Below, in pieces: positions 3,693-57,078 of a DNA stretch of 64,000 nucleotides. The position numbers and the translations under genes were made by a program. Where the stretch lies: assembly GCF_003002055.1 (NCBI RefSeq), contig NZ_PVZF01000001.1:434001-498000 (forward strand), in the 5' to 3' direction. This DNA is from Kineococcus rhizosphaerae. Lineage in GTDB: Bacteria; Actinomycetota; Actinomycetes; Actinomycetales; Kineococcaceae. A model generated the notes under the pieces. It saw only the letters and a list, made by a program, of their open reading frames with translations. It had not been told where the DNA came from and did no database searches. Position 1 is the stretch's first letter. Each line of letters opens with the position of its first letter.

Positions 3693-3761
3693 ACGCACCC
3701 GTCCGGGTGACGGGCGCCCGCGCCACCCGTGTCGCCCCGTGTCGCCCCGGGAACGCACGGA

Positions 3762-3788
3762 CCCCGCTCCCGCGCAGCGGGAACGGGG
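3762..3788 (-). terminator. Hairpin after the response regulator gene
   Basis: Arms ccccgctcccgc (3762-3773) and gcgggaacgggg (3777-3788) pair with one mismatch around a 3-nt loop, 26 bp past the receiver gene stop. It separates that unit from the flhA promoter. Confidence 0.6.
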
Positions 3789-3814
3789 CCGGGAGGACGG
3801 GCGGGTGGGCCGCT

Positions 3815-4204: not shown

Positions 4205-4292
4205 GGGGGTCCTCCTGGACCTGGTGGGGGGACGGGGAACGGACGCGGTGGGAGCGGTGGCGTGGTGGGCTCCCCCGGCCCATCGGCCGGGC

Positions 4293-6143
4293 TCAGCCGG
4301 TGCTGAGCCGCTCGCGCAGCCCCGGGTCCCGGGCCGCGGCGACGGGGAACGTGGCCCGCAGGGTCGCGCCGCCGCCGGGGGTGGGCTCGGCGACGATGCG
4401 CCCGCCGTGGCGCTCGACGATGCGCTGGCAGGTGGCCAGGCCGATGCCGTGCCCGGCCCGGCGGCCTCGTGCGTCGTCGGTGGAGGGGCCGGCGGTGGGA
4501 CCCGCGGAAGGGTCGGCGCAGGGGTCCGCAGCGGGGTCGGCGGCGGAGGTGAACATCCCGAAGACCCGGTGGCGGTGGGCGGGGTCGATGCCGCGGCCGT
4601 TGTCGACGACGGCCAGTTCCCAGCCGCCGGGCCGGTCCGCGACGCGGACCTCGACGCGGCAGGGGCGCCCGGGGTGGCGGTAGCGCACCGAGTTGCCCAC
4701 GAGGTTCTGCAGCAGCTGGCGCAGCAGGACGGGGTCGGCGCGGACGTGGGCGGCGGTGCCGGCGCCGTCGAGGCCGGTCTCGGTGTAGGCGATCTCGACG
4801 GCGCCGGCGGCGGCGCCGAGGTCCTCCACGACGTGGGACAGCACGTCGCGCACGGCGACGGGCCTCGCGGCGAACCCGGTGGAGTCGGCGCGGGCGTGCT
4901 CGAGGACGGCCTCGATGAGGCCCTGCATGCGCCGGGCGGCGCGCAGGGCGGTGCCGGTCCAGGCCGCACCCTGCGCGCCGAGGGCCTCGGCGTGGACGTC
5001 GAGGACGAGTTCGAGGTAGCCGATGACGGAGGTCAGCGGGGCCGCGAGGTCGTGGCTGGCGACGGCGGCGAGGTTGGCCAGGTCGTCGTTGGAGCGCCGC
5101 AGCCGCTCCCCCGCCTCCTCCAGCGCGTGGATGCGGGCCCGGTCGGCGGTGATGTCCTGCATGGCGACGACGGCCCCGATGACGGCGCCCGCCTCGTCGT
5201 GCAGGGCGCGGCCGGTGCAGGTGACGCGCACCGGGTCCGCGTCCCGGGGGGCGATGACGATCTCGACGCCGCGGACGTCCTCGCCGGCCAGGGCGCGCGC
5301 CAGGGGCACGTCGGCGGCGGCCAGCGGGGTCCGGCCGTCGGCGGCGTGCAGGCCGTAGGCGCGGGCGTGCTCGGTCGAGGGCATCCGCGGGTCGGGAGCC
5401 AGGCCGTGGATGCGGCGGGCGGTGGGGTTGAACACCGTCAGGGAGCCCCGGGCGTCGCAGGCCACGACGGCGACGCCGACGGAGTCGAGCAGGGCGGCGG
5501 TGAACTCCTCGCGCGTCTCCAGCTCGGTCAGGGTGTGCTGCAGCAGGTGGCGCTGCTCCTCGACCTCGGCGACGAGGTGGGCCTGGTCGCGGTGGCGGCG
5601 GCGGCGTTCGAGCAGGGCCATGACGACCCCGGCGAGGTCGCGCAGCCGCTCGACCTGCTCGGGGGTGAGGGTGCGGGGGGTGGAGTCGAAGACGCACAGG
5701 CCGCCCAGGTGGTGCCCGTCGGGGGTGATCAGGGGCGCGGAGGCGTAGAAGACCACCTCGGCCAGGCGGCCGTCGACCCACGCCGAGTCGCCGTAGCGGG
5801 CGTCGGTGCGGGCGTCGGGCACGACGACGACGTCGGGGTCGCCGAGGTTGCGGGCGCACAGGGACTCCGAGCGCGCGCAGTCGCCGCCGACGAACCCGAC
5901 GGCCGACAGCTGGCACTGGCGCTGGGAGTCGATGAGGTTGACGGTGGCGGTCGGCACACCGGCCAGGGCGGCGGCGATGCGCACGACGGCGTCGAGCTCG
6001 GGGTCGGCGGGGGTGTCCAGCAGGTCGTAGCCGTGCAGGGCGGCCAGGCGCAGGACCTCCACGCCGGGCGCGGGGGTGCCCGGGCCCGCGAGGAGGCGGG
6101 GGACGCGGTCGGCGGCCGGGGTGTGCTGGCGGGTGCTGGTCAT
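4293..6143 (-). CDS. GAF-PAS sensor histidine kinase (soluble)
   Basis: A 616-aa protein without transmembrane segments. Order: GAF domain about 30-185; short coiled-coil 185-215; PAS domain about 215-335; HisKA dimerisation domain with the H-box VASHDLAAPLTS (phospho-acceptor H364); HATPase_c domain with the N-box LLQNLVGNSVRY and a G-box NGRGIDP. A low-complexity ADPAADPCADPSAGP insert interrupts the ATP-lid region before the HGIGLATCQRI box. ATG at 6143 overlaps the stop of the upstream kinase gene (ATGA), so the two are translationally coupled. The paired kinases and the downstream receiver look like one signalling unit; the stimulus is unknown. Confidence 0.88.
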   Translation of the reverse strand: MTSTRQHTPAADRVPRLLAGPGTPAPGVEVLRLAALHGYDLLDTPADPELDAVVRIAAALAGVPTATVNLIDSQRQCQLSAVGFVGGDCARSESLCARNLGDPDVVVVPDARTDARYGDSAWVDGRLAEVVFYASAPLITPDGHHLGGLCVFDSTPRTLTPEQVERLRDLAGVVMALLERRRRHRDQAHLVAEVEEQRHLLQHTLTELETREEFTAALLDSVGVAVVACDARGSLTVFNPTARRIHGLAPDPRMPSTEHARAYGLHAADGRTPLAAADVPLARALAGEDVRGVEIVIAPRDADPVRVTCTGRALHDEAGAVIGAVVAMQDITADRARIHALEEAGERLRRSNDDLANLAAVASHDLAAPLTSVIGYLELVLDVHAEALGAQGAAWTGTALRAARRMQGLIEAVLEHARADSTGFAARPVAVRDVLSHVVEDLGAAAGAVEIAYTETGLDGAGTAAHVRADPVLLRQLLQNLVGNSVRYRHPGRPCRVEVRVADRPGGWELAVVDNGRGIDPAHRHRVFGMFTSAADPAADPCADPSAGPTAGPSTDDARGRRAGHGIGLATCQRIVERHGGRIVAEPTPGGGATLRATFPVAAARDPGLRERLSTG

Positions 6144-29039: not shown

Positions 29040-29390
29040 TCATTGGCTGCTCATCGCGGTGCGCAGCAACGAGTACTTGGAGTTCAGCGCGCTCAGCACC
29101 GTCTGGTAGCTGAGGTTGGTCGAGATGTTCGAGATCGTCTCCTCGTCGAGGTTGACGTTGTTGCCGTCCTCGCGGGTCGGCTCCAGCGACTTCTTCGTGG
29201 AGATGCCGGAGGTCGCGGCCGAGGCCGGGTCCCCGCTGGCGATGGCGCCGGCCAGGGCGTCCTCGAACTGCACCTTGTTGGCGAGGTAGCCCTTGGTGTT
29301 GATGTTGGCGATGTTGTCGGCGATGGCCCGCTGGCGCGCCTGCAGACCGTTCAACGCGGTGTGCAGTGCGACGCTGGTGAGATCGGACAC
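29040..29390 (-). CDS. flgB: Flagellar rod protein FlgB
   Basis: A 116-aa rod protein: VALHTALNGLQARQRAIADNIANINTKGYLANKVQFEDAL at the N-terminus and LSALNSKYSLLRTAMSSQ at the C-terminus. GTG at 29390 is preferred over the upstream in-frame codon at 29465 because GGAGGG sits just before it and the protein then begins at the family's usual place. First gene of the large flgB-to-flgE unit. Confidence 0.94.
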   Translation of the reverse strand: MSDLTSVALHTALNGLQARQRAIADNIANINTKGYLANKVQFEDALAGAIASGDPASAATSGISTKKSLEPTREDGNNVNLDEETISNISTNLSYQTVLSALNSKYSLLRTAMSSQ

Positions 29391-29466
29391 GGGGCCACCC
29401 TCCGGGGTTTCGAACTGCTGGGTTTCGTTCTGGCCGTGAGGCCGGGGTTCTTGAGGCTCAGACACT

Positions 29467-29495
29467 CCTTCGGCCCACCGGGGCGGGTCCTTGAG
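29467..29495 (-). promoter_or_regulatory. FliA-like promoter of the flgB operon
   Basis: Minus strand CTCA (29495-29492, in CTCAAGG), 17-bp spacer, GCCGAAGG (29474-29467). Predicted leader about 70 nt to the flgB GTG. Confidence 0.7.
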
Positions 29496-29745
29496 CCCCG
29501 ATCGGTGTGCGGGACCACCGATCTGCGGTGGGTCCTCCGGTCGTGGTCACGGGCGTCACTCGAACGGCGGTACCCCCACTGCACCCACCACGCTCCGTGG
29601 GCACCGGCGCCCCACCAGCACCACCTGCGGGCGCCGGACGACCACTCCACCGGCGGCCTCGGCCGGTGCCTCGACCGGCCCGGCCGGGCTCACGGTGAGT
29701 GCCCGTTGCGCCGGACGGGTGACCCCCGATCAGCGCACCCGCCCC

Positions 29746-29774
29746 CTCAAGGTCCTGCGCCGGACTGCCGAGAC
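29746..29774 (+). promoter_or_regulatory. FliA-like promoter of the stator-like pair
   Basis: Plus strand CTCA (29746-29749, in CTCAAGG), 17-bp spacer, GCCGAGAC (29767-29774). It is the same architecture as the flgB promoter on the other strand and places this pair in the flagellar regulon. Confidence 0.65.
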
Positions 29775-29809
29775 ACGGGGCAGCGAACACCCGTCACGCC
29801 CGAGTCCCA

Positions 29810-29857
29810 CGTGCTGCCGGACGTGCTGCCGGACCAGTTGCCGGACCTGTTGCCACG
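29810..29857. repeat. 12-bp tandem repeat in the leader of the stator-like gene
   Basis: Two identical units cgtgctgccgga (29810-29821, 29822-29833) are followed by two degenerate copies (ccagttgccgga, cctgttgcc). They lie between the predicted transcription start and the start codon. Confidence 0.75.
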
Positions 29858-29887
29858 TGAAGTCGACGAGAAGGAACCGCCACCACC

Positions 29888-32017
29888 ATGGACGACGCGC
29901 ACCTGCTCCCCCAGCGCTCCCCCGAGACCCCCGTCGAGAGCTCCCCCGAGAGCTTCGTCGAGAGCTCCACCGAGAGCTCCGCCGAGCCGGGGGGAGAGCT
30001 GTCGCAGCTGGCCGACCAGGCCCTGCAGCTGGCCGGCGCCGAACCCTCCGAGCACCGCGCGGAGGTGCTGCGGCAGCTGGCCTTCGCCGTGCGCACCGAG
30101 GCCGACGGCGGCGACGGCCGGCTGGGCCGGTGGGCCGACGCGGACCTGTTCGAGGTCCTCGACGTCGACGCCGCCGTCGCCCCGCTGGAGCTGCGCCGCA
30201 GCGTCCTGCGCTCGGGCTCGCTGCGCACCATCCTGGTCTTCGCGCCGATCATGGTGACGTGGATCGGCCTGCTGTTCGCCGGCCGCGCCTACGGCGCCAT
30301 GAGCGCCGCCGGGCAGGCCGACGGCGGGGAGTCGTTCCTGCAGCTGTGGCTGACGGGGTTCGGGGGGCGCACGTTCTTCTCCCTGGACCGCGTCGCCGAG
30401 CTCGCCGTGGTCCTCATCACCGCGGCCATCACCGTCGCGGTGGCCACCGACCGCCGCCAGCGCGTCGACGACCTGGCCGCCGCCCACGCCGACGAGTCCC
30501 ACCGGCAACTCCTGCGCGGTTTCGCCGCTCGCGCCACCCTCGTGCTGGCCCCCTTCCGCAGCAACGCCGCCGAACAGCTCGGCGCCCACTTCGAGCGCGG
30601 CCTGACCGAGCTCGGGCGCCTGGTCTCCGAGACCATCCGCCTGCACGCCGACACCAGCGAGCTGGTCGCCACCGTCCGCGCCTCGGCCCAGCACGCGATC
30701 ACCGCCGCCGAGCTGGCCAACACCGGCGGCGCCGACGTCGCCCGCGCCGCGACCGAGCTGCAGACCGCCGTCACCGAGGCCGTCAGCACCCACGGCGCGC
30801 TCATCGCCGCCGACCGCGAGCAGCACACCCGCACCCTGGCCGAGTCGACCACGACGCTGACCGAGCACCTCGAATCCGTGCGCGCTGGCACCGCCGAGGC
30901 GCTGCGCGAGGGGCTGCAGGGCCGCGACCGGGTCCTGTCCGCCGTCGAGGGCGTCTCCTCGGCCGTCGAGGCCCTCTCGACCCAGACCCGCGAGTCCATC
31001 ACCGAGCTGTCCAGCGCCGCGGCGACCATGAGCCGGCACTCCGCCGACTTCGGCGAGGCCGTCACCGGCCACGTCGCCGCCCTGTCGACCACGGCCCGCG
31101 AGTCCGTCGAGACGATGCACGCGACCGTCGTCGCCAGCGTCCAGCAGGTCACGACCATGACCGGCGAGGCCTTCAGCGAGCACGTCTCGGCCTCGGCCGA
31201 GAACGCCGCGCGCACCATGGAGACCCTGCGCCGCGACGTCGAGCGGACCTCCGAGGCCGCCGAGGTCGCCCTGGGCACCGCCACCGACGTCCTGGCCGCC
31301 GCCACCGAGGCCGCCGACCGCCGCGTGCGCCACGAGGAGCGCCTCGCGGACCTGCTCGCCACCCAGAACGAGGTCCTGGACTCCTGGCGGGGCATCGAGA
31401 ACCGCCTCGTCGAGGCCGCCCACGACATGCGCTCGGTGCCGCGCTGGCTGGAGAAGGTCCAGCACGAGCACGCCGACGCCACCGGCCGCGCGCTGCGCAG
31501 CATCGGCTCGACGCTGCGCGAGGACGTCTCGGCCGCGGTCGGCCAGACCCTGGCCATGGCCGGCGAGGACCACGTCCGGCAGGTCAACCGCGCCTACCGC
31601 GACGCCGCGCGCTCCCTGACCCAGGACCTCACCCAGACCCTGAACAACGAGCTGGGCACCGTCGTCGACCACGTCATGGACGGCCTGTCGCGCCAGGTGG
31701 AGACGCTGCCCGAGCGCATCGCGATCGCCTCGGCGCGCCAGCAGCAGCGCACCGCGCCCGCAGCCCCGGCGCCCACCCACGCTCCCGTCCGCGCGTCCGT
31801 CGCGCCCCAGCCGCAGCGCCGTCCCGAGCCGCGTCCCGAGCTCCGTCCGGAGCCGCGTCCCGAGCCCCGCGTCGAGCGCGCCCCGCAGCCGCAGCCCGAA
31901 CCCCAGCGCCGCGTCGTGCGCGCCCCCGAGCCCGAGGTCGAGGAGCAGTTCGTGGCTGTCGCGCCCCGCACCCTGCAGGACCTGGCCGCCCGTCGCTACC
32001 AGCGGGTCGGCCAGTGA
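29888..32017 (+). CDS. Two-TM membrane protein with long coiled-coil tail (stator A-like, unassigned)
   Basis: I do not recognise a named family. The 709-aa protein has a Ser/Glu/Pro N-tail, a small helical domain (about 35-105), TM1 about 111-135, a ~25-residue external loop, TM2 about 165-187, then ~450 residues of Ala/Thr/Glu/Ser-rich heptad-like helix (about 190-640) and a Pro/Arg-rich tail. It lacks the MCP hairpin tip. A membrane base with a long cytoplasmic tail, directly followed by a one-pass protein with an Asp in its TM, resembles the ZorA-ZorB arrangement; MotA has four TMs, so homology is not claimed. ATG at 29888 has GAAGGAA upstream and a flagellar-type promoter. Confidence 0.75.
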   Translation: MDDAHLLPQRSPETPVESSPESFVESSTESSAEPGGELSQLADQALQLAGAEPSEHRAEVLRQLAFAVRTEADGGDGRLGRWADADLFEVLDVDAAVAPLELRRSVLRSGSLRTILVFAPIMVTWIGLLFAGRAYGAMSAAGQADGGESFLQLWLTGFGGRTFFSLDRVAELAVVLITAAITVAVATDRRQRVDDLAAAHADESHRQLLRGFAARATLVLAPFRSNAAEQLGAHFERGLTELGRLVSETIRLHADTSELVATVRASAQHAITAAELANTGGADVARAATELQTAVTEAVSTHGALIAADREQHTRTLAESTTTLTEHLESVRAGTAEALREGLQGRDRVLSAVEGVSSAVEALSTQTRESITELSSAAATMSRHSADFGEAVTGHVAALSTTARESVETMHATVVASVQQVTTMTGEAFSEHVSASAENAARTMETLRRDVERTSEAAEVALGTATDVLAAATEAADRRVRHEERLADLLATQNEVLDSWRGIENRLVEAAHDMRSVPRWLEKVQHEHADATGRALRSIGSTLREDVSAAVGQTLAMAGEDHVRQVNRAYRDAARSLTQDLTQTLNNELGTVVDHVMDGLSRQVETLPERIAIASARQQQRTAPAAPAPTHAPVRASVAPQPQRRPEPRPELRPEPRPEPRVERAPQPQPEPQRRVVRAPEPEVEEQFVAVAPRTLQDLAARRYQRVGQ

Positions 32018-32595
32018 GGCGCCCCGCCGCGGGCCGCGGGCGCGGCCGCCGCGAGAACGCGACCGTCGGCCTGGCCGGCTGGGTCTTCGCCGACGCCCTG
32101 CTCGCGCTGACGATCATCGGCCTCGCGGCCGGTGGCGCGGTCCACGCCGGCGACGACTCCGCCGGTGAGTCGCGCACCGCCGCGACGGCGGTCGCCGCAA
32201 CCGTCGCCCCCGCCCCGACCCCCGTGCCCACCGTGACGGTCACGGCCCCCGCCCCGGACCCGGTGCCCTCGATGCCCGCGGGCGTCGCGCAGGCCCCCGT
32301 GGTCCTGCAGGTCAGCGTCGACAGCTCCTCCGACGACGCGATCCGCGCCTCGGTCGCCGCCGCCGTGCAGGACCTGGCCGCCCAGGGCCGCCGGGCCGCC
32401 TTCGTGCTGACCTTCGGCACGGCGACCGACCCCGGCGCGGGGACCGCGCTGGCCCGCAGGGTCAACGCCCAGCTCGACGTCGCCTCCCCCGGCGTCTTCC
32501 AGGGCTCGGCCAAGCGCGACTTCTGGCGCGCGGTCAACGCCCAGTCCCCGCAGGCCGGTGTCGTGCAGCTTGAGCTGTACCTGCTGCAGCAGTGA
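32014..32595 (+). CDS. One-TM protein with intramembrane Asp (stator B-like, unassigned)
   Basis: A 193-aa protein translated from GTG at 32014, overlapping the preceding stop (GTGA), so the two are coupled. A basic N-terminus (RRPAAGRGRGRR) precedes one TM helix with the motif GWVFADALLALTIIGLAAG; its Asp27 falls where MotB/ZorB-type proteins carry the ion-binding aspartate. A Thr/Pro/Val-rich linker (about 45-90) leads to a small extracytoplasmic alpha/beta domain (about 95-193: VVLQVSVDSSSDDAIRASV, AFVLTFG, VVQLELYLLQQ). I cannot show an OmpA-type peptidoglycan-binding loop in it. The ion-channel role is inference from topology, the Asp and pairing. Confidence 0.75.
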   Translation: MRRPAAGRGRGRRENATVGLAGWVFADALLALTIIGLAAGGAVHAGDDSAGESRTAATAVAATVAPAPTPVPTVTVTAPAPDPVPSMPAGVAQAPVVLQVSVDSSSDDAIRASVAAAVQDLAAQGRRAAFVLTFGTATDPGAGTALARRVNAQLDVASPGVFQGSAKRDFWRAVNAQSPQAGVVQLELYLLQQ

Positions 32596-32637
32596 GCCGG
32601 CCGCACCGGGCCGGGTGAGCGGGCACCGCCACCCCTC

Positions 32638-32674
32638 GATCGAGGCCCCCACCCGCCGGGTGGGGGCCTCGATC
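32638..32674 (+). terminator. Terminator after the stator-like pair
   Basis: Perfect 17-bp arms (32638-32654 and 32658-32674) with a 3-nt loop lie 42 bp past the stop. They isolate the pair from the cyclase gene that follows. Confidence 0.85.
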
Positions 32675-32708
32675 CGCTTGCGGCCCGCGTGCGGCGGAGC
32701 CCGGGACG

Positions 32709-32737
32709 CTCAAGGCGGTGGGCCCAGTGGTCGATCC
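32709..32737 (+). promoter_or_regulatory. FliA-like promoter of the diguanylate cyclase (leaderless)
   Basis: CTCA (32709-32712, in CTCAAGG), 17-bp spacer, GTCGATCC (32730-32737; one mismatch to GCCGA). A GTG in frame with the cyclase begins 8 nt later at 32745, the same spacing as at fliM and the kinase gene. Confidence 0.5.
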
Positions 32738-32744
32738 GTGCGAG

Positions 32745-35030
32745 GTGGCCCCTCGTCCGCCCTCGCCGGGCACCGCGCGCACCGTCGCGGTGCACGTGGG
32801 GTTCGCGTGCGCCTACACCCTCGCCGTCGTCGTCGGCCGCGGCACCCGGCTGCCCGGCTCGACGCTGGCCCTGGTGTGGCCGGCCGCCGCGGTGGCGTTC
32901 GTGTGGCTGGCCCAGGTCTGGCGCGACCGGCGCGCGGTGGCGGCGGTCACGGCCGCGGTCGCGGTGCTGTCGGGGCTGCTGAACACCGTCACCGGCACCG
33001 GACCGGCGCTGGGTGCGGTGTTCGGGCTCGCCAACGGCGCGCAGGCGTTCGTCTCGTGCGCGGTGACGCACCGGCTGCAGACCCGGGCGGGCACGCAGCC
33101 GTGGCGGTTGCGGGTCCCGGCGGACCTGTCGGCCCTGGTCGTCGGGTCCACGGCCGGGGCGGCGGCCGCGACGTGCATCGGGCCCCTGGCCCTGCTCCTG
33201 CTGGACGGGGTCCCCTGGACCCAGTCGGCCGGGGCCTGGTTGCTGCGCAACGCGGCCAGCACCTTCGTCTTCGCCGCGCTCGCGCTGCGGCTGGGCGACC
33301 GGGGCCTGGCGCGCACGACGCCCGGCCCCGGGCGCCCTGAGGTCCTCGCGGCCGTCGTGGTCGTCGCCGCCGCCTACACCGTGGTCTTCGCCCAGCCGCA
33401 GCACCTGCCGGTGGCCTTCACGCTGCTGCCGGCCAGCATGTGGATCGCGCTGCGCTTCCGCACCACGGCCACCGCCGGGCACGTCCTGGTCGTCGGGGTG
33501 TGGGTCGTGACGCTCACCATGGCCGGGCGGGGCCCGTTCTCGGTGGGCACCCCGGTGACACGGGTGCTGCTGGCCCAGGGGTTCGTGACGGTCGTCGCGC
33601 TGGCCTCCCTCGTCCTGGCCCTGATCCGCGACGACCGGCTGGTCCTGGTGGCCGGCCTGCGCCGGGCTCAGGAGGAGTCCGAGGCCCAGGCCGCGCTGCT
33701 GCAGACCGTCTTCGAGAGCACCGGGGACGCCCTGAGCGTGTTCGACGCCCGGGGCACGGCGCTGCTGCTCAACCCGGCCGCCGCGGCGCTGTTCCCCTAC
33801 CTGGCCGCCGGGGCCCCGATGGAGCGCTGGAGCGGGCAGGTCCAGGTCCGGCGGCCCGACGGGCGGCCGTGGGAGACGGCCGACCTGCCGGTCGCCCGGG
33901 CCCTGCGCGGGGAGACGGTCGAGCCGACCGACATGCTGGTGCGGACCGCGGGCGCCGCGGAGGGGTTGCTGAGCGTGGGCGCCCACCCGCTGCCGGCCAG
34001 CACCGGTGAGCACTGGGCCGGCGGCGCGGTCGTGGCCGCGCGCGACGTCACGGCCGAGCGGGCGGCCGTGGCCCGGCTCGCCGCGTCCGAGCGACGGTTC
34101 CGAGCCGCCTTCGACACCGCCCCCGTGGGGATGATGGTCGTCGGCCTGGCCGGTGCGGAGGCCGCGCAGATCCTGCAGGTCAACGCGACGCTGTGCGAGT
34201 TCACCGGGTTCGCCGCCTGGGAACTGCTGCAGCTGGACGTCCACGCCCTGACCCACCCCGACGACCGCGCCGACTGCGTCAGCGCGTTCGCGCCCTTCCT
34301 GTCCGGGGACGTGACGCAGGCCCGCCAGGAGAAGCGCTACCAGCACGCCGACGGCCGGACCCGCTGGGGCCTGATGTCGGCCACCATGCTGACCGAAGCC
34401 GGCTGGGGCGGTGCCACCGGGACCGGCGACGAGCCCTACCTGCTGTGCCTCATCGAGGACGTCACGGCGCGCAAGGCCGCCGAGCGGCTGCTGCGGCACC
34501 AGGCGCTGCACGACTCCCTGACGGGTCTGCCGAACCGGGTCCTGCTGCGCGACCGCCTGACCCACGCGCTGGCCGCGGCGCGGCGCGAGCCGGCGCAGGT
34601 GGGAGTGCTGTTCATCGACCTCGACGGGTTCAAGGCCGTCAACGACGCCGCCGGTCACGCGGCGGGTGACGAACTGCTGCAGCAGGTCGCCGACCGGTTC
34701 AGCACGTGCCTGCGCCCCGAGGACACGCTGGCGCGCTGCGGCGGGGACGAGTTCGCGGTGGTCTGCCCCGACCTGGTCCTGTCCGGCCGGGGGCAGGAGG
34801 AGACGGTGCTGCAGGCGATCGCGGACCGGCTGCGGGAGTGCCTGGCCACTCCCTTCGCGCTCACCGCGGGGACCTACTCGGTCGGGGCCAGCGTCGGGAC
34901 GACGTGGGCGAGGCCGGTCGCCGGCCGCGACGACGCCGACGTGGCCGAGGCGGCGCTGGCCGTGGCGGACGAGGCGATGTACGCCGCGAAGCGGCGCGGC
35001 AGGGTCAGGCCGGTCCCGTCGCGCGGCTGA
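32745..35030 (+). CDS. MASE1-like membrane diguanylate cyclase (PAS-PAS-GGDEF)
   Basis: About 761 aa from GTG 32745; GTG codons at 32718 and 32727 are in-frame alternatives, but 32745 fits the promoter spacing. A MASE1-type multi-TM sensor (about 1-300, with TLALVWPAAAVAFVW) precedes two PAS domains (about 315-430 and 445-570) and a GGDEF domain. The active site reads RCGGDEFAVV and is preceded by RPED in the position of the RxxD inhibitory I-site, so product feedback is expected. It makes cyclic di-GMP, which commonly opposes flagellar motility. The 3' end overlaps the convergent phosphatase gene by 26 bp. Confidence 0.9.
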   Translation: MAPRPPSPGTARTVAVHVGFACAYTLAVVVGRGTRLPGSTLALVWPAAAVAFVWLAQVWRDRRAVAAVTAAVAVLSGLLNTVTGTGPALGAVFGLANGAQAFVSCAVTHRLQTRAGTQPWRLRVPADLSALVVGSTAGAAAATCIGPLALLLLDGVPWTQSAGAWLLRNAASTFVFAALALRLGDRGLARTTPGPGRPEVLAAVVVVAAAYTVVFAQPQHLPVAFTLLPASMWIALRFRTTATAGHVLVVGVWVVTLTMAGRGPFSVGTPVTRVLLAQGFVTVVALASLVLALIRDDRLVLVAGLRRAQEESEAQAALLQTVFESTGDALSVFDARGTALLLNPAAAALFPYLAAGAPMERWSGQVQVRRPDGRPWETADLPVARALRGETVEPTDMLVRTAGAAEGLLSVGAHPLPASTGEHWAGGAVVAARDVTAERAAVARLAASERRFRAAFDTAPVGMMVVGLAGAEAAQILQVNATLCEFTGFAAWELLQLDVHALTHPDDRADCVSAFAPFLSGDVTQARQEKRYQHADGRTRWGLMSATMLTEAGWGGATGTGDEPYLLCLIEDVTARKAAERLLRHQALHDSLTGLPNRVLLRDRLTHALAAARREPAQVGVLFIDLDGFKAVNDAAGHAAGDELLQQVADRFSTCLRPEDTLARCGGDEFAVVCPDLVLSGRGQEETVLQAIADRLRECLATPFALTAGTYSVGASVGTTWARPVAGRDDADVAEAALAVADEAMYAAKRRGRVRPVPSRG

Positions 35031-36594
35031 GCAGCAGCAGGGTGTGGTCGTCGGCGCGGGCCCGGAAGCGGCTGTGCCGCACGGCCGCGGCCTCGACGGC
35101 GTCGACGAGTCCGGCACGCCGGTCGCGCACCTGCGCCAGGGACCGGCGCACCCCCTCGAGGCCGAACTCGCGGCCGCCGGGGTCGCGGGCCTCCAGCACG
35201 CCGTCGGTGTACAGCAGCAGCCGCTGACCGGGCACGAAGTCCACGGCCCGCTCGGTCCACTCCGCGTCCACGAGGACCGGCGACAGCAGCGGTCCGGTGG
35301 CCGCCAGCTCCTGCCACCGGCCGTCGGGGGTCTGCAGCAGCCCGGGCGGGTGGCCGGCGTTGACGTAGGTCAGCCGGGCGCCGACGAGGTCCAGGAGGCC
35401 GACGAAGAGCGTGGCGAACATCTCCGGGTCGGTGTCGGCCGAGCGGGCGGCCAGGACGCGCAGCGCCTGGGCGGGTGAGGCGGTGACGTGCAGCGCCGTC
35501 CGCAGGGTGTGCTTGAGGCGCAGGGCGAACACCGCGCTGGCCGCGCCGTGCCCGCTCACGTCGCCGATGACGACGGCGAGCTCGCGGGTCGTGACCTCGA
35601 AGACGTCGCACCAGTCCCCGGCCAGGACCCCCTCGGCCGCCTCGGCGCGCACCTCCACGCTCAGCCCGGCCCACGCCGACGGTCCCGGTGGTGCGTCCGC
35701 GCTCAGCTCGCGCTGCAGGGCGGCGAGCGCCGGGTCGGCCTGGGCCAGGGCCTCCAGGGCCTGCCGGGTGCGTCCCAGGTCGGCGGTGAGGCGGTCACGC
35801 ATGTCGGCGACGTCACCGGCCAGGGCGTCGACCTCGGGGGCGCCGCCGGTGGGCAGCCGGGCGTCGAGGTCGCCGTGGGCGACGGCGCGGCTGGCGCGGG
35901 CCAGGCGGGCCACCGGGGCGGTCACCGTGCGGCGCAGGAAGAGGTAGCCGCCGGCGAGGCCGGCCACGAGGACGGCCAGGGACACCGCGACGGACGCCTG
36001 CAGCCGCCGGTCCAGGGTGTCGAAGCGGTCCCGGTGCCGGCGCTCGCGCTCGCTCAGCCAGGCGTCGAGGGCGTCGACCTGCCGGCGCAGGGTGTCGAAG
36101 AGCTGCTTGCCGGCCAGGGTCTGGTCGAGGGCGGCCGCGACGGTGGGGTCACCGGCCTGCCGGCGGGCCCGTTCCCGCTGGGCCCAGGCGCTCCAGCGGG
36201 CGTGGGTGTCCAGGGGCGCGGTGAGCAGGCCGTCGGGGACCCCGAGGGCGCCGGCCTGCCGGCGCAGGGTGTCCTGCAGGGCGGGCAGCGCGGTCTCGGC
36301 GGTGGTGAGGGGTTCGAGGAACTGGTCCTCGCCGGTGGCCAGGTAGCCGCGCAGCCCGGTCTCCTCGTCGAGGTAGCCCGTGAGCACGGCGCCGAGGGTG
36401 TGCCGGGCCGACCGGGCGAGGTCCTGCTGCTGCCGGGCGGTCGCGACCTGGGCGAGGGTGGTGAGCACGAGGGTGCCGGCGGCCAGGGCGAGCACGAGGG
36501 CCACGCAGCTGACGGTGGCCACGAGCCGGGTCAGCGACCAGCCCGGGGACCAGATCGGGGACCGGGCCGCGCGCCGGCGGGCCTGAGGGCTCAC
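35005..36594 (-). CDS. Membrane SpoIIE-type serine phosphatase (CHASE3-HAMP-PP2C)
   Basis: About 529 aa from GTG 36594. TM1 about 15-40, extracytoplasmic CHASE3-like helical domain (DEETGLRGYLATGEDQFLEPL), TM2 about 185-208, HAMP (VTAPVARLARASRAVAHGDLDARL), then a PP2C/SpoIIE phosphatase domain with GDWCDVFEV, VIGDVSGHGAASAVFAL, YVNAGHPPGLL, LLLYTDGVLEARD and RADDHTLLLL, covering the metal-binding aspartates. Such proteins control anti-anti-sigma factors; no partner is nearby. An in-frame GTG at 36606 is an alternative start. It is divergent from the EamA gene. Confidence 0.9.
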   Translation of the reverse strand: MSPQARRRAARSPIWSPGWSLTRLVATVSCVALVLALAAGTLVLTTLAQVATARQQQDLARSARHTLGAVLTGYLDEETGLRGYLATGEDQFLEPLTTAETALPALQDTLRRQAGALGVPDGLLTAPLDTHARWSAWAQRERARRQAGDPTVAAALDQTLAGKQLFDTLRRQVDALDAWLSERERRHRDRFDTLDRRLQASVAVSLAVLVAGLAGGYLFLRRTVTAPVARLARASRAVAHGDLDARLPTGGAPEVDALAGDVADMRDRLTADLGRTRQALEALAQADPALAALQRELSADAPPGPSAWAGLSVEVRAEAAEGVLAGDWCDVFEVTTRELAVVIGDVSGHGAASAVFALRLKHTLRTALHVTASPAQALRVLAARSADTDPEMFATLFVGLLDLVGARLTYVNAGHPPGLLQTPDGRWQELAATGPLLSPVLVDAEWTERAVDFVPGQRLLLYTDGVLEARDPGGREFGLEGVRRSLAQVRDRRAGLVDAVEAAAVRHSRFRARADDHTLLLLSRATGPA

Positions 36595-36646
36595 CCTCCC
36601 ATCCACCCGTCGCGCCGGGTCGGCGTCAAGACGCGGCGCGACGGGC

Positions 36647-36675
36647 CTCAAGGACGGCCGGGTGCCGGTCGAGGG
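36647..36675 (+). promoter_or_regulatory. FliA-like promoter of the EamA transporter gene
   Basis: CTCA (36647-36650, in CTCAAGG), 17-bp spacer, GTCGAGGG (36668-36675; one mismatch). The GTG start codon begins 7 nt later, again implying a leaderless mRNA. Confidence 0.5.
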
Positions 36676-36681
36676 GATCGG

Positions 36682-37533
36682 GTGAGCGTCGCCTTGGCCT
36701 TGATGGCCAGTTTCCTGTGGGGTGGTTCGGACTTCGTCGGCGGCAGCGTGAGCCGGCGGTTGCGGGCCGGTCAGGTCCTCGCGGTCTCCCAGGCTCTGTC
36801 CGCGCTGGTGCTGCTGGTGGCCCTGCCGCTGCTGGTGGCCTCGGGGCACGTGGTCCGGGTACCGCTGGGGGGCTGGGTGGGCTGGGCGGTGGTGGCCGGT
36901 CTCACGTGGGCGGGGGCGATGGCCGCCCTGTACACCGCGCTGGCCCGCGGGACGATGGGCGTGGTCGCCCCGATCGCCTCCTGCGGGATGCTCGTGCCGT
37001 TCGTGGCGGGCCTGGTCGCCGGTGAGCGACCCGGGGCGCTGCAGGTGGTGGGGGCGGTGCTCGCGCTGGTGGGCGTGGTGGGGGTGGCGGGTCCGGAGCT
37101 GTCGCCGTCGACCCGGACGCCGCCGCTGGCCGTGGGGCTGGCGCTGCTGGCGGCCCTGCTGTTCGGGGTCGAGATCGAGGCGCTGGCCCGCGCCAGCGAG
37201 ACGTCCGTGGCCGGCTCGCTGCTGGGCATGCGGCTGACCTCGGTGGTGCTGGTCGTGGCGGTGGCGTTCGCCCGCCGTCGCGACGCCGCGCCGGTGGGCC
37301 GGCGGGACCTGTCGGCCCTGCTGGGGCTGGGCGTGCTGGACCTGGGCGCGACGGCGGCCTACGCGCTGGCCTCCACCGCGGGTCTGGTCAGCGTCGTCGC
37401 GGTCCTGGCCTCCCTGTACCCGGCGGTGACGGTGCTGCTGGCCGGTCGCTTCCACGGTGAGCGCCTGGCCCGGGTGCAGGTCGCCGGTGTCGTGGTGGTG
37501 CTGCTCGGGGCGGTCCTGACGTCCGTGGGCTGA
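36682..37533 (+). CDS. EamA/DMT-family transporter
   Basis: A 283-aa protein with about ten hydrophobic segments arranged as two five-helix EamA repeats (ALMASFLWGGSDFVGG at the start, ALLAALLFGVEIEALARA opening the second half). Members export or import small metabolites; the substrate cannot be read from sequence. GTG at 36682 lacks a Shine-Dalgarno but fits leaderless translation from the upstream promoter. It stands alone between the phosphatase and the GGDEF-EAL gene. Confidence 0.87.
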   Translation: MSVALALMASFLWGGSDFVGGSVSRRLRAGQVLAVSQALSALVLLVALPLLVASGHVVRVPLGGWVGWAVVAGLTWAGAMAALYTALARGTMGVVAPIASCGMLVPFVAGLVAGERPGALQVVGAVLALVGVVGVAGPELSPSTRTPPLAVGLALLAALLFGVEIEALARASETSVAGSLLGMRLTSVVLVVAVAFARRRDAAPVGRRDLSALLGLGVLDLGATAAYALASTAGLVSVVAVLASLYPAVTVLLAGRFHGERLARVQVAGVVVVLLGAVLTSVG

Positions 37534-37618
37534 GCAGGGGGAGCCTCTGGTCCACCCGTTCGGCGGGTCGAGCGGTGCGCCCGTGCAACCGACACCTCTA
37601 GTGACCTTGGAGGTAGTC

Positions 37619-40009
37619 GTGGCTTCAACCACACCGCACCGGCTGGTGCTGCCGCTGCGCTGGCGGCGTGTCCTGCACGCGCTGCTGCTGTGCGTCCCGG
37701 TCGCCTTCGTCGTCTCGACGGTGCCCGGGGTCCGGTCGGGGTCGGGCTACTCCTTCGTGCTGGACGGGCTGCTCAACAACCTGGCCTACGAGGCGGCGGC
37801 GGGGCTGTGCCTGGTGCGGACCCTGGGCCTGACCGGTTCCCGGCGCGGGGGGTACCTGTTGTCGATCGCCCTGGCGGTGTACGGCTCGGGCAACGTCTTC
37901 TGGACGTTCTTCGTGCGCCCGTTGCCGGACCAGCCGTACCCCTCCGGCGCCGACGCGGGGTTCCTGCTCTTCTACCCGCTGGTGTTCGTGGCCCTCATCC
38001 TGCTGGCCAAGCACCGCGACGCCCGGCACGCCCGGAGCCTGTGGCTGGACGGGGTGGTGGGGGCCCTGGCCGTGGGCGCCGTGGCCGCGGCCGCGGTCAT
38101 CGGGCCCATCGTGTCCGCGCGCGGTTCGTGGGCGGCGGTGGCCACGACGTCGGCCTACCCGGCGCTGGACCTGGTGCTGCTGATGGTCCTGGCCGCGGTG
38201 CTGGCCCTGTACGGCTGGCAGCCCCCGAAGGGGCTGTGGCTGCTGGCCGCGGGCCTGGTGGTGTTCGTCGTCGCCGACATGGCGTACCTGTTCGCCACGG
38301 CGAAGGGGACGTACGTCTCGGGCGGGCTGACCGACGGGGTCTGGGTCAGCGGTGTGGTGCTGATGGGGTTCACCCCGGGCTGGACGTCGGCCCCGACCGG
38401 TCCGAAGCTGCCCACCTGGGCGCTGCTGTCGATCCCGGTGCTGTCCACCGCGGTGGCCCTGGGGGTCCTGGTCACCGACCACCGGTACGCCCTGCACCCG
38501 GTGGCCGTCGCGGTCGCGGCGGCGACGATCCTCAGCGCCCTGGCCCGGCTGCTGTTCACCCTGCGGGAGGTGACCAAGCTCGCCGAGCAGCGCGAGCTGG
38601 CGCAGACCGACGAGCTGACGGGGCTGGGCAACCGGCGCGCCCTGTACCGCCGGACCCCGCTGCTGCTGGCCGAGGCCACCGCGGGGGCGCCGGAGGCCAC
38701 CGTGGCCCTGCTGCTGCTGGACCTCGACGGGTTCAAGGAGGTCAACGACAGCCTCGGGCACCAGGCCGGTGACGCCCTGCTGCGCGACATCGGCCGCCGC
38801 CTGCGGCAGGTGACGGACACCTCGCTCCCCGGTTCCGCGCAGACGATCGTCGTGCGCCTGGGCGGGGACGAGTTCGCCCTCGTGCAGGCTGCCGGCCCGA
38901 GCGGGGCGCTGGGGCTGGCCGAGGCGGTCCACGCGGCCCTGGACGAGCCCTACGACCTGCAGGGGGTCCACGTCCGGGCGCGGGCCAGCGTCGGCGTCTC
39001 CGTCCTGCCCGCGGCGACCGCGGAACTGGCGACGCTGCTGCGCCAGGCCGACGTGGCGATGTACCACGCCAAGAGCCGGCGGCTGGGGACCTTCTCCTAC
39101 TCGGTGGACGTCGACGAGTTCGCCTCCGGCGAGCGGCTGGAGACCGCCGAGCTGCTGCGCTCGGACATCACCGCGCGCCGGATGCTCCTGCACTACCAGC
39201 CGAAGGTCGACGTCGCCACGGGCGTCGTGCGCAGCGTCGAGGCGCTCGTGCGCTGGCAGCACCCGCGCCGCGGGCTGCTGTTCCCCGACGCGTTCCTGCC
39301 GGTGGTCGAGACCGCGGGGCTGATGGAGGAGCTGACGCGCGCGGTCCTCGAGCAGGCCCTGGACCAGGCCGCGCGCTGGTGGCGCGCGGGCGCCCCGCTG
39401 GCGGTGGCGGTGAACCTGTCGGCCTCCTCGCTGGGGGACGCCGACCTGCCCGGCCGGGTCGCGGACCTGCTCGCCGAGCGCGGGCTGCCGGCGCACCTGC
39501 TGGAGATCGAGATCACCGAGGACTTCCTCATGGCCGACCGCGTGCGCGCCCAGGGCATCCTGGACAGTCTGCGCCGCAGGGGGATCCGCGTCGCGGTCGA
39601 CGACTACGGGACGGGGTACTCCTCCCTGGCCTACCTGCGTCAGCTGCCCATCGACGACCTGAAGCTCGACAAGTCCTTCCTCGACGACCTCGTCGGGGAC
39701 CCCCGCGCCCTGGCCATCGTCCGCTCGACGATCATGCTGGCCCACTCCCTGGGACTGCGGCTGGTGGCCGAGGGCGTCGAGGACGAGGCCACCAGCCGCG
39801 AGCTCGCGGCCGCCGGGTGCGACGTCATGCAGGGCTGGCTGTACGCCAAGGCCCTGCCCGCCGACGAGCTCGACCACTGGCTGCTCGAGCACGACCCCCG
39901 GTCCGTCGTGCGCGGCACCGCCGCCACTCCGGACACCACCCCGGGCACCGCCCCGGACACCGTCCTGACCACCGTCCCCGCCCCTGCTCTCCCCGGGAAG
40001 TTCTCGTGA
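37619..40009 (+). CDS. Membrane GGDEF-EAL protein (cyclic di-GMP turnover)
   Basis: A 796-aa protein with about nine TM segments in residues 20-320, then GGDEF (about 335-500) and EAL (about 510-760). The GGDEF site is intact (RLGGDEFALV) but has no RxxD I-site in the expected place. The EAL domain has EALVRW, the NLSASSL and EITEDFL blocks and DDYGTGYSSLAYL, so phosphodiesterase activity is plausible. Which activity dominates cannot be read. The C-terminus is a Thr/Pro repeat (TPDTTPGTAPDT). GTG at 37619 has TTGGAGG upstream. The stop overlaps the next gene (GTGA). Confidence 0.9.
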   Translation: MASTTPHRLVLPLRWRRVLHALLLCVPVAFVVSTVPGVRSGSGYSFVLDGLLNNLAYEAAAGLCLVRTLGLTGSRRGGYLLSIALAVYGSGNVFWTFFVRPLPDQPYPSGADAGFLLFYPLVFVALILLAKHRDARHARSLWLDGVVGALAVGAVAAAAVIGPIVSARGSWAAVATTSAYPALDLVLLMVLAAVLALYGWQPPKGLWLLAAGLVVFVVADMAYLFATAKGTYVSGGLTDGVWVSGVVLMGFTPGWTSAPTGPKLPTWALLSIPVLSTAVALGVLVTDHRYALHPVAVAVAAATILSALARLLFTLREVTKLAEQRELAQTDELTGLGNRRALYRRTPLLLAEATAGAPEATVALLLLDLDGFKEVNDSLGHQAGDALLRDIGRRLRQVTDTSLPGSAQTIVVRLGGDEFALVQAAGPSGALGLAEAVHAALDEPYDLQGVHVRARASVGVSVLPAATAELATLLRQADVAMYHAKSRRLGTFSYSVDVDEFASGERLETAELLRSDITARRMLLHYQPKVDVATGVVRSVEALVRWQHPRRGLLFPDAFLPVVETAGLMEELTRAVLEQALDQAARWWRAGAPLAVAVNLSASSLGDADLPGRVADLLAERGLPAHLLEIEITEDFLMADRVRAQGILDSLRRRGIRVAVDDYGTGYSSLAYLRQLPIDDLKLDKSFLDDLVGDPRALAIVRSTIMLAHSLGLRLVAEGVEDEATSRELAAAGCDVMQGWLYAKALPADELDHWLLEHDPRSVVRGTAATPDTTPGTAPDTVLTTVPAPALPGKFS

Positions 40010-41004
40010 CCACCAGCACCACCGCGCTCGTCGAGGTCCTGGAGGACCTCGACGCGGTCCTGGCCGCCCTGTCCCGCCGCGCCGACGTGCTCGACGCCCG
40101 CTGTTCGCCCACCGCGTCGGCCGCGTGGGTGCGTTCGGCCCTGGAGGTCGTCCCGCCGGCGGCGGTGTGGGGCGTGGACCTGGGAGGCGACGAGGGTTTC
40201 GTCGCGCTGGTCGACCACGTGGACGACGGTGGACGCCGGACCGGGCTGCTCACCGGCGGGGGCGGCTACGCGGCCGGCCTGCCCTCGACCTCCCCGGCGG
40301 CGGCGGCGGCCCTGGGAGCGGCCGTGGCGGACGCCGCCGCCCGGCGCGGCGCCGCGCTGGACCTGCAGGAGCTGCCCGACGACCCGCACGTGCGGGCCTT
40401 CGCGGCCGGTGCGGGTGCGGACGTCGTGCCGGGGCTGGCGGTCCCCGTCGTAGAGCGCCCGGGCGAGGGGCAGCAGCTGGTCAGCGCCGGGGTGCGCAAG
40501 AACCTGCGCAAGACGGCCAACCGGCTGGCCGCCGACGGCGTCCGCGCCGAGGTGACCATCAGCGAGGACCCCGCCCGGTTCGCGGCGGTGCTGCCCGAGC
40601 TGGAGACGGCCTACCGCGACCGGGACGCGGTGCACGGCATCGCGTGCGCGCTGGACACCCCCCAGGGCCGGCGGACGTGGTGGTCGCGGTTGCAGGCCCT
40701 GGGCAACCTGGGGCGGCGGGAGCTGGCCGAGCTGCGCCTGGACGGCGAGCTCGCCGCGTACGTCGTCGGTGTGCCCGGCGCGCAGCGGTACGGGATCTTC
40801 GAGGGGCGCTTCGTGACCCGGTGGGCGCGCTACTCCCCCGGCCGGGTGCTGGAGCACGCCGTGCTGCAGCACGCCTTCACCGACCCGGACGTGCAGGTCG
40901 TGGACTGGATGACGGGGGTGGCCCCCGAGACGCTGCTGACGGTGAGCCGGTTCGAGCCGCGCACCGCGGTGCGCCGGGCGGCTCAGCGCGCGAGCGCCCG
41001 GTAG
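40006..41004 (+). CDS. GNAT-fold protein, CelD/BcsL or DUF2156-like
   Basis: A 332-aa soluble protein. The C-terminal half (about 160-330) has a GNAT-like layout: a basic GVRKNLRKTANRLAADG helix, ELAELRLDGELAAYVVGV strand pair and a YGIFEGRF...YSPGRVLEHAVLQHA segment, as in CelD/BcsL-type acetyltransferases and aminoacyl-transferase relatives. The N-terminal half is unassigned. It is translationally coupled to the GGDEF-EAL gene, which suggests a polysaccharide or envelope modification under c-di-GMP control; that is inference. Confidence 0.7.
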   Translation: MTTSTTALVEVLEDLDAVLAALSRRADVLDARCSPTASAAWVRSALEVVPPAAVWGVDLGGDEGFVALVDHVDDGGRRTGLLTGGGGYAAGLPSTSPAAAAALGAAVADAAARRGAALDLQELPDDPHVRAFAAGAGADVVPGLAVPVVERPGEGQQLVSAGVRKNLRKTANRLAADGVRAEVTISEDPARFAAVLPELETAYRDRDAVHGIACALDTPQGRRTWWSRLQALGNLGRRELAELRLDGELAAYVVGVPGAQRYGIFEGRFVTRWARYSPGRVLEHAVLQHAFTDPDVQVVDWMTGVAPETLLTVSRFEPRTAVRRAAQRASAR

Positions 41005-41912
41005 CTGGCCTGCAGCCAGGGGACGGCGATGCCCAGGGTGGGCGCGCCGAGGACGGCCGCGGCGGCGGCGTAGGCGGCGACCGACAGGCCCTTGCGGGCG
41101 GGGCGGGCCGCGAGGCGGCGCACGCGGGCCAGGGCGGCGGACCCGACGAGCATCTCGGACTCCCCCGCCGGGCCGCCGGCCAGGGCGACGAGGGCGCGGG
41201 CCAGGGGCACCGAGCCGGCGCGGCGGCGGGCGGAGTCGTCGGCGAGCATCTCGACGAGCAGGCGCACGGAGTCGAGGGCGGCCTGGCTGGACACGACGCG
41301 GGGGAAGGCGGCGTGCAGGGCGGTGAACCCCTCGAGGACGAGGTCGTGGCGGGCGCGCAGGTGGGCCCGTTCGTGGGCCAGGACGGCGCGCACCTCCTCG
41401 GGGGTCAGGGAGTTCAGCATGGCGTCGGAGACGACGACGCGGGAGTGCACGCCGGGCACGCAGTAGGCGACGCGGCCGGGGCCGGTCAGGACCCGCACGC
41501 CGGTCTCGGACAGCAGCGCGGCGTCGACCTCGGAGGTGGACTCCTTGCGGTGCAGCAGGTCCACCATCTCGCGGTGACGGTTGCGACGGCGGCGGGTGCG
41601 GATGCCGACGAGGGTGGCGACGACCCAGAACCGGACGGTGACGACGGCGACGAGCGCCGAGCCGAGACCGATGAGGGTGGTCTGGACGGGGCCGTGACGT
41701 TCGAGGAAGGGGAACCCGGGTTCCTCGGTGAACAGCAGGGACAGCGAGGCCAGACCGGCGCCGAGGGTGGCCAGGACGGCACCGAGCGCGATGGCCTGCC
41801 AGAGCACGAGGGCAGCGCGCGGCACCTGCCAGGTCCACCGGGCCCGGGCCAGCAGGGCCGGGACGGGACCCGCCAGGAGCAGCGCCAGTGCTGCGAACCA
41901 GACGGCGGTCAC
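40983..41912 (-). CDS. BlaR1/M56-family membrane metallopeptidase
   Basis: A 309-aa protein with three or more TM helices (about 5-25, 35-60, 75-100, 275-300) and a cytoplasmic zinc-peptidase site HERAH (in VLAHERAHLRARHD), with a downstream glutamate in LVEMLADDSA. It lacks the penicillin-sensor domain of true BlaR1. Paired with a BlaI-type repressor 10 bp upstream, it probably inactivates that repressor on some membrane signal. Its 3' end overlaps the convergent GNAT gene by 22 bp. Confidence 0.88.
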   Translation of the reverse strand: MTAVWFAALALLLAGPVPALLARARWTWQVPRAALVLWQAIALGAVLATLGAGLASLSLLFTEEPGFPFLERHGPVQTTLIGLGSALVAVVTVRFWVVATLVGIRTRRRRNRHREMVDLLHRKESTSEVDAALLSETGVRVLTGPGRVAYCVPGVHSRVVVSDAMLNSLTPEEVRAVLAHERAHLRARHDLVLEGFTALHAAFPRVVSSQAALDSVRLLVEMLADDSARRRAGSVPLARALVALAGGPAGESEMLVGSAALARVRRLAARPARKGLSVAAYAAAAAVLGAPTLGIAVPWLQASYRALAR

Positions 41913-57015: not shown

Positions 57016-57050
57016 CGGACGCCTTACCTGTGAGGGAGGGGTACGTCACC

Positions 57051-57078
57051 CAATCGGCGTAGCGTCAGCTGGCTTGAG
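57051..57078 (-). promoter_or_regulatory. FliA-like promoter of the FkbH-like gene
   Basis: Minus strand CTCA (57078-57075), 16-bp spacer, GCCGATTG (57058-57051). The start codon is 36 nt downstream. This ties filament-modification genes to the flagellar regulon. Confidence 0.65.

What the first reader, a model, noticed from the sequence alone, without database searches (positions are those of the whole stretch)
29746..32674. Stator-like membrane pair in the flagellar regulon, possibly a new ion-driven motor unit
Seen: two coupled genes (GTGA) encode (a) a two-TM protein with ~450 residues of cytoplasmic helical tail and (b) a one-TM protein with Asp27 in GWVFADALLALTII, a linker and a small outer domain. 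They have a promoter of the same type as flgB on the opposite strand and their own terminator. Known: MotB (about D32), ZorB and TolR/ExbD-type subunits use a TM aspartate for ion flow, and ZorA has a long cytoplasmic tail. Inference: a dedicated third kind of stator or motor-coupled mechanotransducer, distinct from motAB in this cluster and not a Zorya defence system, since no zorC/D/E-like gene follows.
Basis: partly seen in the sequence, partly recalled or inferred. Interest (0 to 1): 0.85.

Follow-up and report, generated by a model that had tools for sequence, protein, structure and literature searches.

The report
Flagellum-linked membrane pair, Zorya/ExbD-like
In the swimming bacterium Kineococcus, a pair of membrane proteins that may be a small ion-powered motor carries the same kind of promoter as flagellar genes, while several of its relatives in other actinobacteria sit beside genes typical of anti-phage and conflict systems.

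Summary
Overlapping genes A (29888-32017) and B (32014-32595) encode a two-TM protein with a tail of about 520 residues and a one-TM protein with Asp27. Nine of 12 genomes of the family have the pair, divergent from flgB in 9 of 9 (and the window). A FliA-like promoter lies upstream of A in 9 of 9.

New: the pair belongs to an actinobacterial family not named in the libraries searched. I kept 14 non-Kineococcus loci (14 of 16 hits, 344 genomes). Eight have HMM-supported conflict- or defence-type neighbours (no background rate). fliF was absent from all 4 such genomes tested.

B's TM matches ExbD/TolR, Asp on Asp (54.5%; best of 100 permuted controls 25.0%). A shows no detectable kinship to MotA/TolQ/ExbB. 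Structure prediction was unusable.

Most likely it is a compact ZorAB-like, ion-coupled module recruited into the flagellar regulon. A dedicated third stator is possible but unsupported: three flagellar genomes lack it, and in both Kineococcus ones flgB adjoins the gene that follows the block.

The parts
29467..29495 (-). FliA-like promoter towards flgB: CTCAAG-N15-GCCGA
   Evidence: the same type towards flgB in 9 of 9 Kineococcus loci
29746..29774 (+). FliA-like promoter towards gene A: CTCAAG-N15-GCCGAGAC
   Evidence: [CT]TCAAG-N15-GCCGAG present upstream of A in 9 of 9 Kineococcus loci
29888..32017 (+). gene A, 709 aa: N-terminal cytosolic part, two TM helices, long cytoplasmic helical tail, Pro-rich C-terminus
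   Evidence: no Pfam or NCBIfam hit over cut-off
30227..30292 (+). TM1 of A (TILVFAPIMVTWIGLLFAGRAY); Thr124 (30257-30259) and Trp125 are invariant in 16 of 16 family rows
30392..30448 (+). TM2 of A, preceded by the conserved outer loop FLQLW..GF.GR
30452..32014 (+). cytoplasmic tail of A (about 520 residues, coiled-coil type, last part Pro/Arg-rich)
   Evidence: weak PADLOC ZorA matches fall on the tail only
32014..32595 (+). gene B, 193 aa, GTG start overlapping the A stop (GTGA)
32071..32142 (+). TM of B, AGWVFADALLALTIIGLAAGG; Asp27 codon 32092-32094
   Evidence: aligned with the Asp of ExbD/TolR
32281..32592 (+). small outer domain of B (about 100 residues, no Pfam match over cut-off)
32640..32672 (+). 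15-pair G+C-rich hairpin after B, without a T run

Best explanation
A and B form a compact, probably ion-coupled membrane module. B's Asp-bearing helix sits inside an oligomer of A, as ExbD/TolR/ZorB do in their partners. Proton or sodium passage moves B against A, and the movement is passed to a cytoplasmic partner through A's long helical tail, on the model of ZorA. The family is actinobacterial in all that I found, and 8 of 14 relatives outside Kineococcus lie beside conflict- or defence-type genes. In Kineococcus one copy sits next to flgB with a FliA-like promoter, so it is probably made when the flagellum is built. Shown: the pair, its conservation, the Asp, the promoter motif, the synteny, the ExbD/TolR likeness of B's TM, the neighbours of the relatives. 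Inferred: assembly of A around B, ion flow, force or signal transfer through the tail, sigma-factor control. Not known: what it acts on in Kineococcus.
For: Pair in 9 of 12 genomes of the family, divergent from flgB in 9 of 9 (plus window). FliA-like promoter upstream of A in 9 of 9; 6 sites in the window against 0.08 expected, one of them before flbD-motA-motB. FliA/WhiG sigma factor over the curated cut-off in 12 of 12 genomes of the family; a second match in 12 of 12 (175.0-190.9 bits, cut-off 189.6, over it only in G001), in this genome 2.3 kb past the window end. Asp of B in 15 of 16 family rows, Glu in the other. Thr and Trp of A's TM1 in 16 of 16. B against 12 ExbD/TolR 54.5% with Asp on Asp, against E. 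coli ExbD alone 87.2% and TolR alone 28.1%; 100 permutations of the TM columns gave at most 25.0%; MotB (3 sequences) against ExbD/TolR gave 13.1%. Distant A+B pairs at 14 loci, 8 of 14 with conflict- or defence-type neighbours. In MotAB the ion channel is built by only two A helices plus the B helix (PMC12505986, passages), and in type II ZorA the cytoplasmic extension begins about residue 100 (PMC11890865, section 6 part 1), so a two-TM A subunit is plausible.
Against: A is not detectably related to MotA, TolQ or ExbB: single E. coli TolQ 0.4%, MotA 0.05%, ExbB 0.1%, a MotA profile 0.3%, a TolQ/ExbB profile 4.9% and then in TM2 and tail, unchanged when TM1 is permuted. The control MotA against TolQ/ExbB gives 94.6%. 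The single-sequence alignment that puts A's invariant Thr on TolQ Thr145 has 0.4% probability and was not reproduced with the 11-sequence profile. B against MotB shows nothing convincing (0.4%, 6.2% and 5.2%, the last two outside the TM). No usable structure (mean pLDDT 48.6 and 54.2) and no fold match. The neighbour count has no background control.
Confidence: 0.55

Rival explanations
1. A flagellar stator or torque-modulating unit: A/B rings dock on the flagellar base and contribute torque, load sensing or a fuel switch, next to MotAB.
For: Own FliA-like promoter and flgB-divergent position in 9 of 9 Kineococcus copies; Asp-bearing TM.
Against: Three genomes of the family with fliF lack it. 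Relatives live in 4 of 4 tested genomes without fliF. A lacks the PF01618 domain. Whether it has a FliG-contacting torque interface was not tested.
Confidence: 0.17
2. An anti-phage device made only in motile cells, for example against phages that enter by the flagellum: ZorAB-like envelope sensing, with the tail activating a cytoplasmic effector.
For: 8 of 14 non-Kineococcus loci have conflict- or defence-type neighbours; ZorAB is the closest analogue in layout.
Against: No such gene among the tested window neighbours: MASE1-PAS-GGDEF, CHASE3-HAMP-SpoIIE, GGDEF-EAL, GNAT. No effector was identified. The neighbour count lacks a background rate.
Confidence: 0.2
3. A non-conducting scaffold or mechanosensor: A's coiled coils and B's outer domain tether the flagellar pole to cell wall and cytosol, and the Asp is a structural or helix-pairing residue.
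For: A is unrelated by profile to known channel subunits. The acidic residue is Glu in one family member.
Against: Near-invariance of Asp in a TM that matches ExbD/TolR above all 100 permuted controls.
Confidence: 0.18

Closest known systems
Zorya ZorA/ZorB (types I and II)
   Same: Two-gene membrane core; B-type subunit with a TM acid; A-type subunit with a long cytoplasmic helical tail; relatives beside defence-type genes.
   Different: ZorA HMM score far below cut-off (10.4 against 190 bits, tail only); no ZorB hit; no recognised peptidoglycan-binding domain in B; no zorC/D/E-like gene among the window neighbours examined.
ExbB/ExbD and TolQ/TolR
   Same: B's TM aligns with ExbD/TolR, Asp on Asp.
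   Different: A lacks PF01618 and any TolQ/ExbB profile match; its tail is far longer; no TonB/TolA-like partner was noticed (not searched for).
Flagellar MotA/MotB (present in the same window)
   Same: Same promoter type; FAD-LL resembles the MotB YADML motif by eye.
   Different: No PF01618 in A, no Pfam domain in B, no profile match in the TM.
GAP1-N2 and kinase/PP2C/vWA conflict systems of actinobacteria (Burroughs et al. 2020, PMC7159879)
   Same: Several relatives lie beside these gene sets.
   Different: The Kineococcus pair does not among the neighbours tested. The word counts of that paper's main text show no MotB, TolQ or ExbB, and ZorA only as an author's name; I read section 29 and passages.

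Membership tests
Flagellar stator MotA/MotB | MotA_ExbB domain (PF01618) in the A subunit | tested here: not met
   No such hit at E up to 1 in A; the window MotA scores 93.2 bits
Flagellar stator MotA/MotB | TM Asp in the B subunit | tested here: met
   15 of 16 rows Asp, 1 Glu; whether it is essential was not tested
Flagellar stator MotA/MotB | OmpA-like peptidoglycan-binding domain in B | tested here: not met
   No OmpA-type Pfam hit at E up to 1; the fold model was too poor to judge
Flagellar stator MotA/MotB | Torque interface contacting FliG | not tested
   No complex model could be made
ExbBD/TolQR | ExbD/TolR-like TM helix with Asp | tested here: met
   54.5% against 12 ExbD/TolR, best of 100 permutations 25.0%; a moderate, not a decisive, probability
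ExbBD/TolQR | TolQ/ExbB core in the partner | tested here: not met
   4.9%, unchanged by permuting TM1; MotA control 94.6%
Zorya | ZorA and ZorB HMM match | tested here: not met
   NF033914 10.4 bits against cut-off 190; PADLOC ZorA matches weak (best E 5.7e-05) and in the tail; B none
Zorya | Effector genes zorC/D, zorE or zorF/G next to zorAB | tested here: not met
   Tested window neighbours are GGDEF, SpoIIE-type phosphatase, GGDEF-EAL and GNAT by Pfam; PADLOC was run only on A and B in the window
Zorya | Long cytoplasmic helical tail on the A subunit | tested here: met
   About 520 residues in the window; roughly 207-413 in nine distant relatives measured
Any 5:2 ion-driven motor | Five A around two B | not testable with these tools
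   Only single chains can be predicted; those models were poor
Kinase/PP2C/vWA or GAP1-N2 conflict operon | Those genes adjacent | tested here: not met
   Not among the window neighbours tested; present in several relatives

The most novel reading that the evidence does not exclude
A previously unnamed family of minimal (two-TM plus one-TM) ion-driven motors exists in actinobacteria, often beside conflict or defence genes. In Kineococcus it has been brought under the flagellar sigma factor, giving either a flagellum-coupled third motor or a motility-stage anti-phage sensor. This would be a case of a defence-type motor moved into the flagellar regulon.
Probability: 0.35. Interest if true: 0.85.

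Novelty: new variant of a known kind. Interest (0 to 1): 0.62.

Why it matters
MotAB, TolQR, ExbBD and Zorya are established uses of the pentamer-dimer ion motor. A family with only the two A helices needed for the channel, found in several cases next to conflict-system genes and once in a flagellar regulon, would extend the range of this engine. It would also give a direct test of whether flagellar and defence motors exchange parts. It names a conserved, untested gene pair of the actinobacterial flagellar region that can be deleted in a motile laboratory strain.

Tried and rejected
Rejected: (1) Zorya membership from the PADLOC ZorA hits. They lie in the coiled-coil tail and come together with JetC/MukB-like hits, so they reflect composition. 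(2) The single-sequence hhalign alignment of A with TolQ that pairs the invariant Thr with Thr145 (0.4%): not reproduced with an 11-sequence profile. (3) The order-level hit G105 (1 of the 10): a multi-TM transporter-like ORF, dropped. (4) One search gave 17 hits in 197 genomes; besides the window's own I kept 4 and dropped 12 short weak ones, of which only G418 was read. One search gave 16 hits in 344; I kept 14 and dropped G342 and G615 unread. G556 and G542 are weak by score (1.0e-4, 6.5e-4) and were kept because an A-like gene precedes B. (6) Relatives in viral contigs and plasmids: none.

Limits: the genome search scores only part of the first-look candidates, so absences are soft; a phylum sample found the pair only in the window's genome (1 of 296). 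The 9-of-9 promoter statement used a regular expression that fixes the motif, so the column conservation is partly by construction; that each region holds a match is the result. That the motif resembles the FliA/WhiG consensus is recalled, not from a call. Gene names flgB, flgC, fliE, fliG, fliH, FliL are by eye; fliF rests. The 16-row alignments hold 3 Kineococcus and 13 other rows; L053 was left out as close to L052. Hydropathy gives two TM segments in 10 of 14 distant A proteins at a cut-off of 1.6, one in L089, L091 and L092 (a second at 1.2) and three in L088. Support labels printed were shifted by re-rooting; I use the Newick values only.

Papers: PMC11890865 (passages, section 6 part 1), PMC7159879 (passages, section 29), PMC12505986, PMC12204202 and PMC13192584 (passages only), PMC2587704 (search listing only). 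No description of this pair was found in searches (open-access PMC only).
Full report
What is there. Two genes overlap by four bases (GTGA). A runs 29888-32017 and encodes 709 residues; B runs 32014-32595 and encodes 193. A has a soluble N-terminus, a TM hairpin (hydropathy peaks at residues 114-132 and 169-187) with a conserved outer loop FLQLW..GF.GR, then about 520 residues of mainly helical tail ending in a Pro/Arg-rich stretch. B has one TM, AGWVFADALLALTIIGLAAGG, with Asp27, a Pro-rich linker and about 100 outer residues. Neither has a Pfam or NCBIfam match over cut-off. The genome holds one copy of each. The nearest named relatives are K. vitellinus, K. indalonis and Kineococcus sp. TRM81007, so the window is taken as Kineococcus.

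The flagellar link. Of 12 genomes of the family searched with B, 9 have it, all in the window's genus. A gives the same 9 in a sample of 297 genomes of the order, plus one false hit, G105. In the window and all 8 other loci the pair is divergent from flgB. In 7 of these 8, flgC, fliE, fliF and fliG follow flgB; in the short contig L021, flgC is not found in the 2 kb beyond flgB, and fliF, fliG and flgC lie on another contig (L070). CTCAAG-N14-16-GCCGA occurs 6 times in the window against 0.08 expected. By the gene calls, one site precedes flgB, one A, one flbD-motA-motB (17860), one the minus-strand gene that starts near 1535 and one the gene at 54253-57015; the site at 992 lies inside a called gene. 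[CT]TCAAG-N15-GCCGAG lies upstream of A in 9 of 9 genomes, and a site of the same type faces flgB in 9 of 9. All 12 genomes have a FliA/WhiG sigma factor over the cut-off. A second match is present in 12 of 12 at 175.0-190.9 bits (cut-off 189.6, over it only in G001); in this genome it lies 2.3 kb beyond the window end at 189.1 bits. Which sigma factor reads the sites is not shown.

It is not required for a flagellum. The FliF C-terminal domain is present in 12 of 12 genomes, including the three without the pair, G006, G007 and G011. In both Kineococcus genomes without it, flgB adjoins a homologue of the window's M48-type gene (40983-41912; 76% and 77% identity), followed by the BlaI-, cydA- and cydB-like genes. 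So the block from A to the GNAT gene (29888-41004) is absent at this place in 2 of 2. No such neighbours were found in the G011 stretch. Insertion and loss are both possible.

The family is wider and its setting elsewhere differs. Profiles of B found distant relatives in the class. I kept 14 of the 16 hits and fetched their loci. In 14 of 14 an A-like gene lies upstream of B (by eye); in the nine measured, A and B overlap or lie within 35 bases. Across 16 rows A keeps Pro, Thr, Trp (P...TW in TM1) and Phe, Trp of the outer loop. B keeps AGW and, in 15 of 16, the Asp, with Glu in L094.

Neighbours of the relatives, within about 7 kb and over Pfam cut-offs unless stated. L050: vWA, PP2C. L051: vWA, PP2C, BrxC/D ATPase, DEAD helicase. 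L087: BrxC/D and a helicase scoring 1003 bits as BrxHI. L090: PP2C, kinase, two HSP70, GrpE; its vWA match is under the cut-off. L052: DO-GTPase2 just over (27.7 against 27). L093: GAP1-N2, DO-GTPase2. L092: HmaA (1035 bits) and an SNF2 helicase. L091: HsdR, DUF4268; its DO-GTPase2 match is under the cut-off. That is 8 of 14. L088 has an N6 methylase and a kinase and was not counted. L089 and L094 gave no hit in the proteins tested (2 and 3). The neighbours of L053, L095 and L096 were not tested. The kinase-like genes of L050, L051 and L087 gave no Pfam hit. No background rate was measured. Several sets match the GAP1-N2 themes of Burroughs et al. (HSP70/GrpE; kinase, PP2C and vWA; PMC7159879 section 29).

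Is it an ion motor. For B the evidence is moderate. hhalign of the 16-row family against 12 ExbD/TolR gives 54.5% with Asp on Asp, against E. coli ExbD alone 87.2%, TolR 28.1% and MotB 0.4%. Permuting the TM columns 100 times gave at most 25.0%. MotB (3 sequences) against ExbD/TolR, an accepted kinship, gives 13.1% in the same test, and the window's FliL-like protein as a negative control 0.1%. For A the test is negative: 0.05-0.4% against single E. coli proteins, 0.3% against a MotA profile, 4.9% against TolQ/ExbB in TM2 and tail, which does not change when TM1 is permuted, while MotA against TolQ/ExbB gives 94.6%. A could still be a much reduced relative, because the channel of MotAB is made by two A helices and one B helix (PMC12505986, passages), and the cytoplasmic extension of type II ZorA starts near residue 100 (PMC11890865). 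Or it may be an independent solution. Structure prediction could not decide.

Reading. The best-supported account is a compact, ExbD/ZorB-like, probably ion-coupled module whose long tail passes movement or a conformational signal to a cytoplasmic partner. The Kineococcus copy appears recruited into the FliA-type flagellar regulon. The tree puts the Kineococcus sequences on one side of a branch with 100% support and resolves no well-supported sister (Newick). What the module does for the flagellum or the motile cell is open: torque or load sensing, motility-stage phage defence, and envelope tethering all remain.

Noticed in passing
   Followed up: partly
L067 (G006) 3122-4673 and L068 (G007) 4061-5647, compared with window 29040-41912: In both Kineococcus genomes without the pair, flgB adjoins the M48-type gene, then BlaI-, cydA- and cydB-like genes: the block from A to the GNAT gene is absent at this place.
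   Followed up: partly
L094 9959-10435: B homologue with Glu in place of the TM Asp (AAGWLFAELAM).
   Followed up: no
window 32718-40009: Next to the pair lie a MASE1-PAS-GGDEF protein, a CHASE3-HAMP-SpoIIE phosphatase and a GGDEF-EAL protein; the GGDEF-EAL gene is found beside the pair in 3 of 8 other loci (L014-L016).
   Followed up: no
window 54253-57078: A 920-residue protein with only a weak HAD-type match has a FliA-like promoter site upstream at 57078.
   Followed up: no
G000:C1:859730-860410 and 500296-500952: Two FliA/WhiG-like sigma-factor matches stand out in each of the 12 genomes of the family (the second mostly just under the cut-off); which one reads the CTCAAG/GCCGA sites is unknown.
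   Followed up: no
L095 and L096 (family f44, genomes of about 1.3 Mb): Very small actinobacterial genomes keep the pair with a short A tail (A of 188 residues in L095, 221 in L096) and AGWMYADLFL in B.
   Followed up: no
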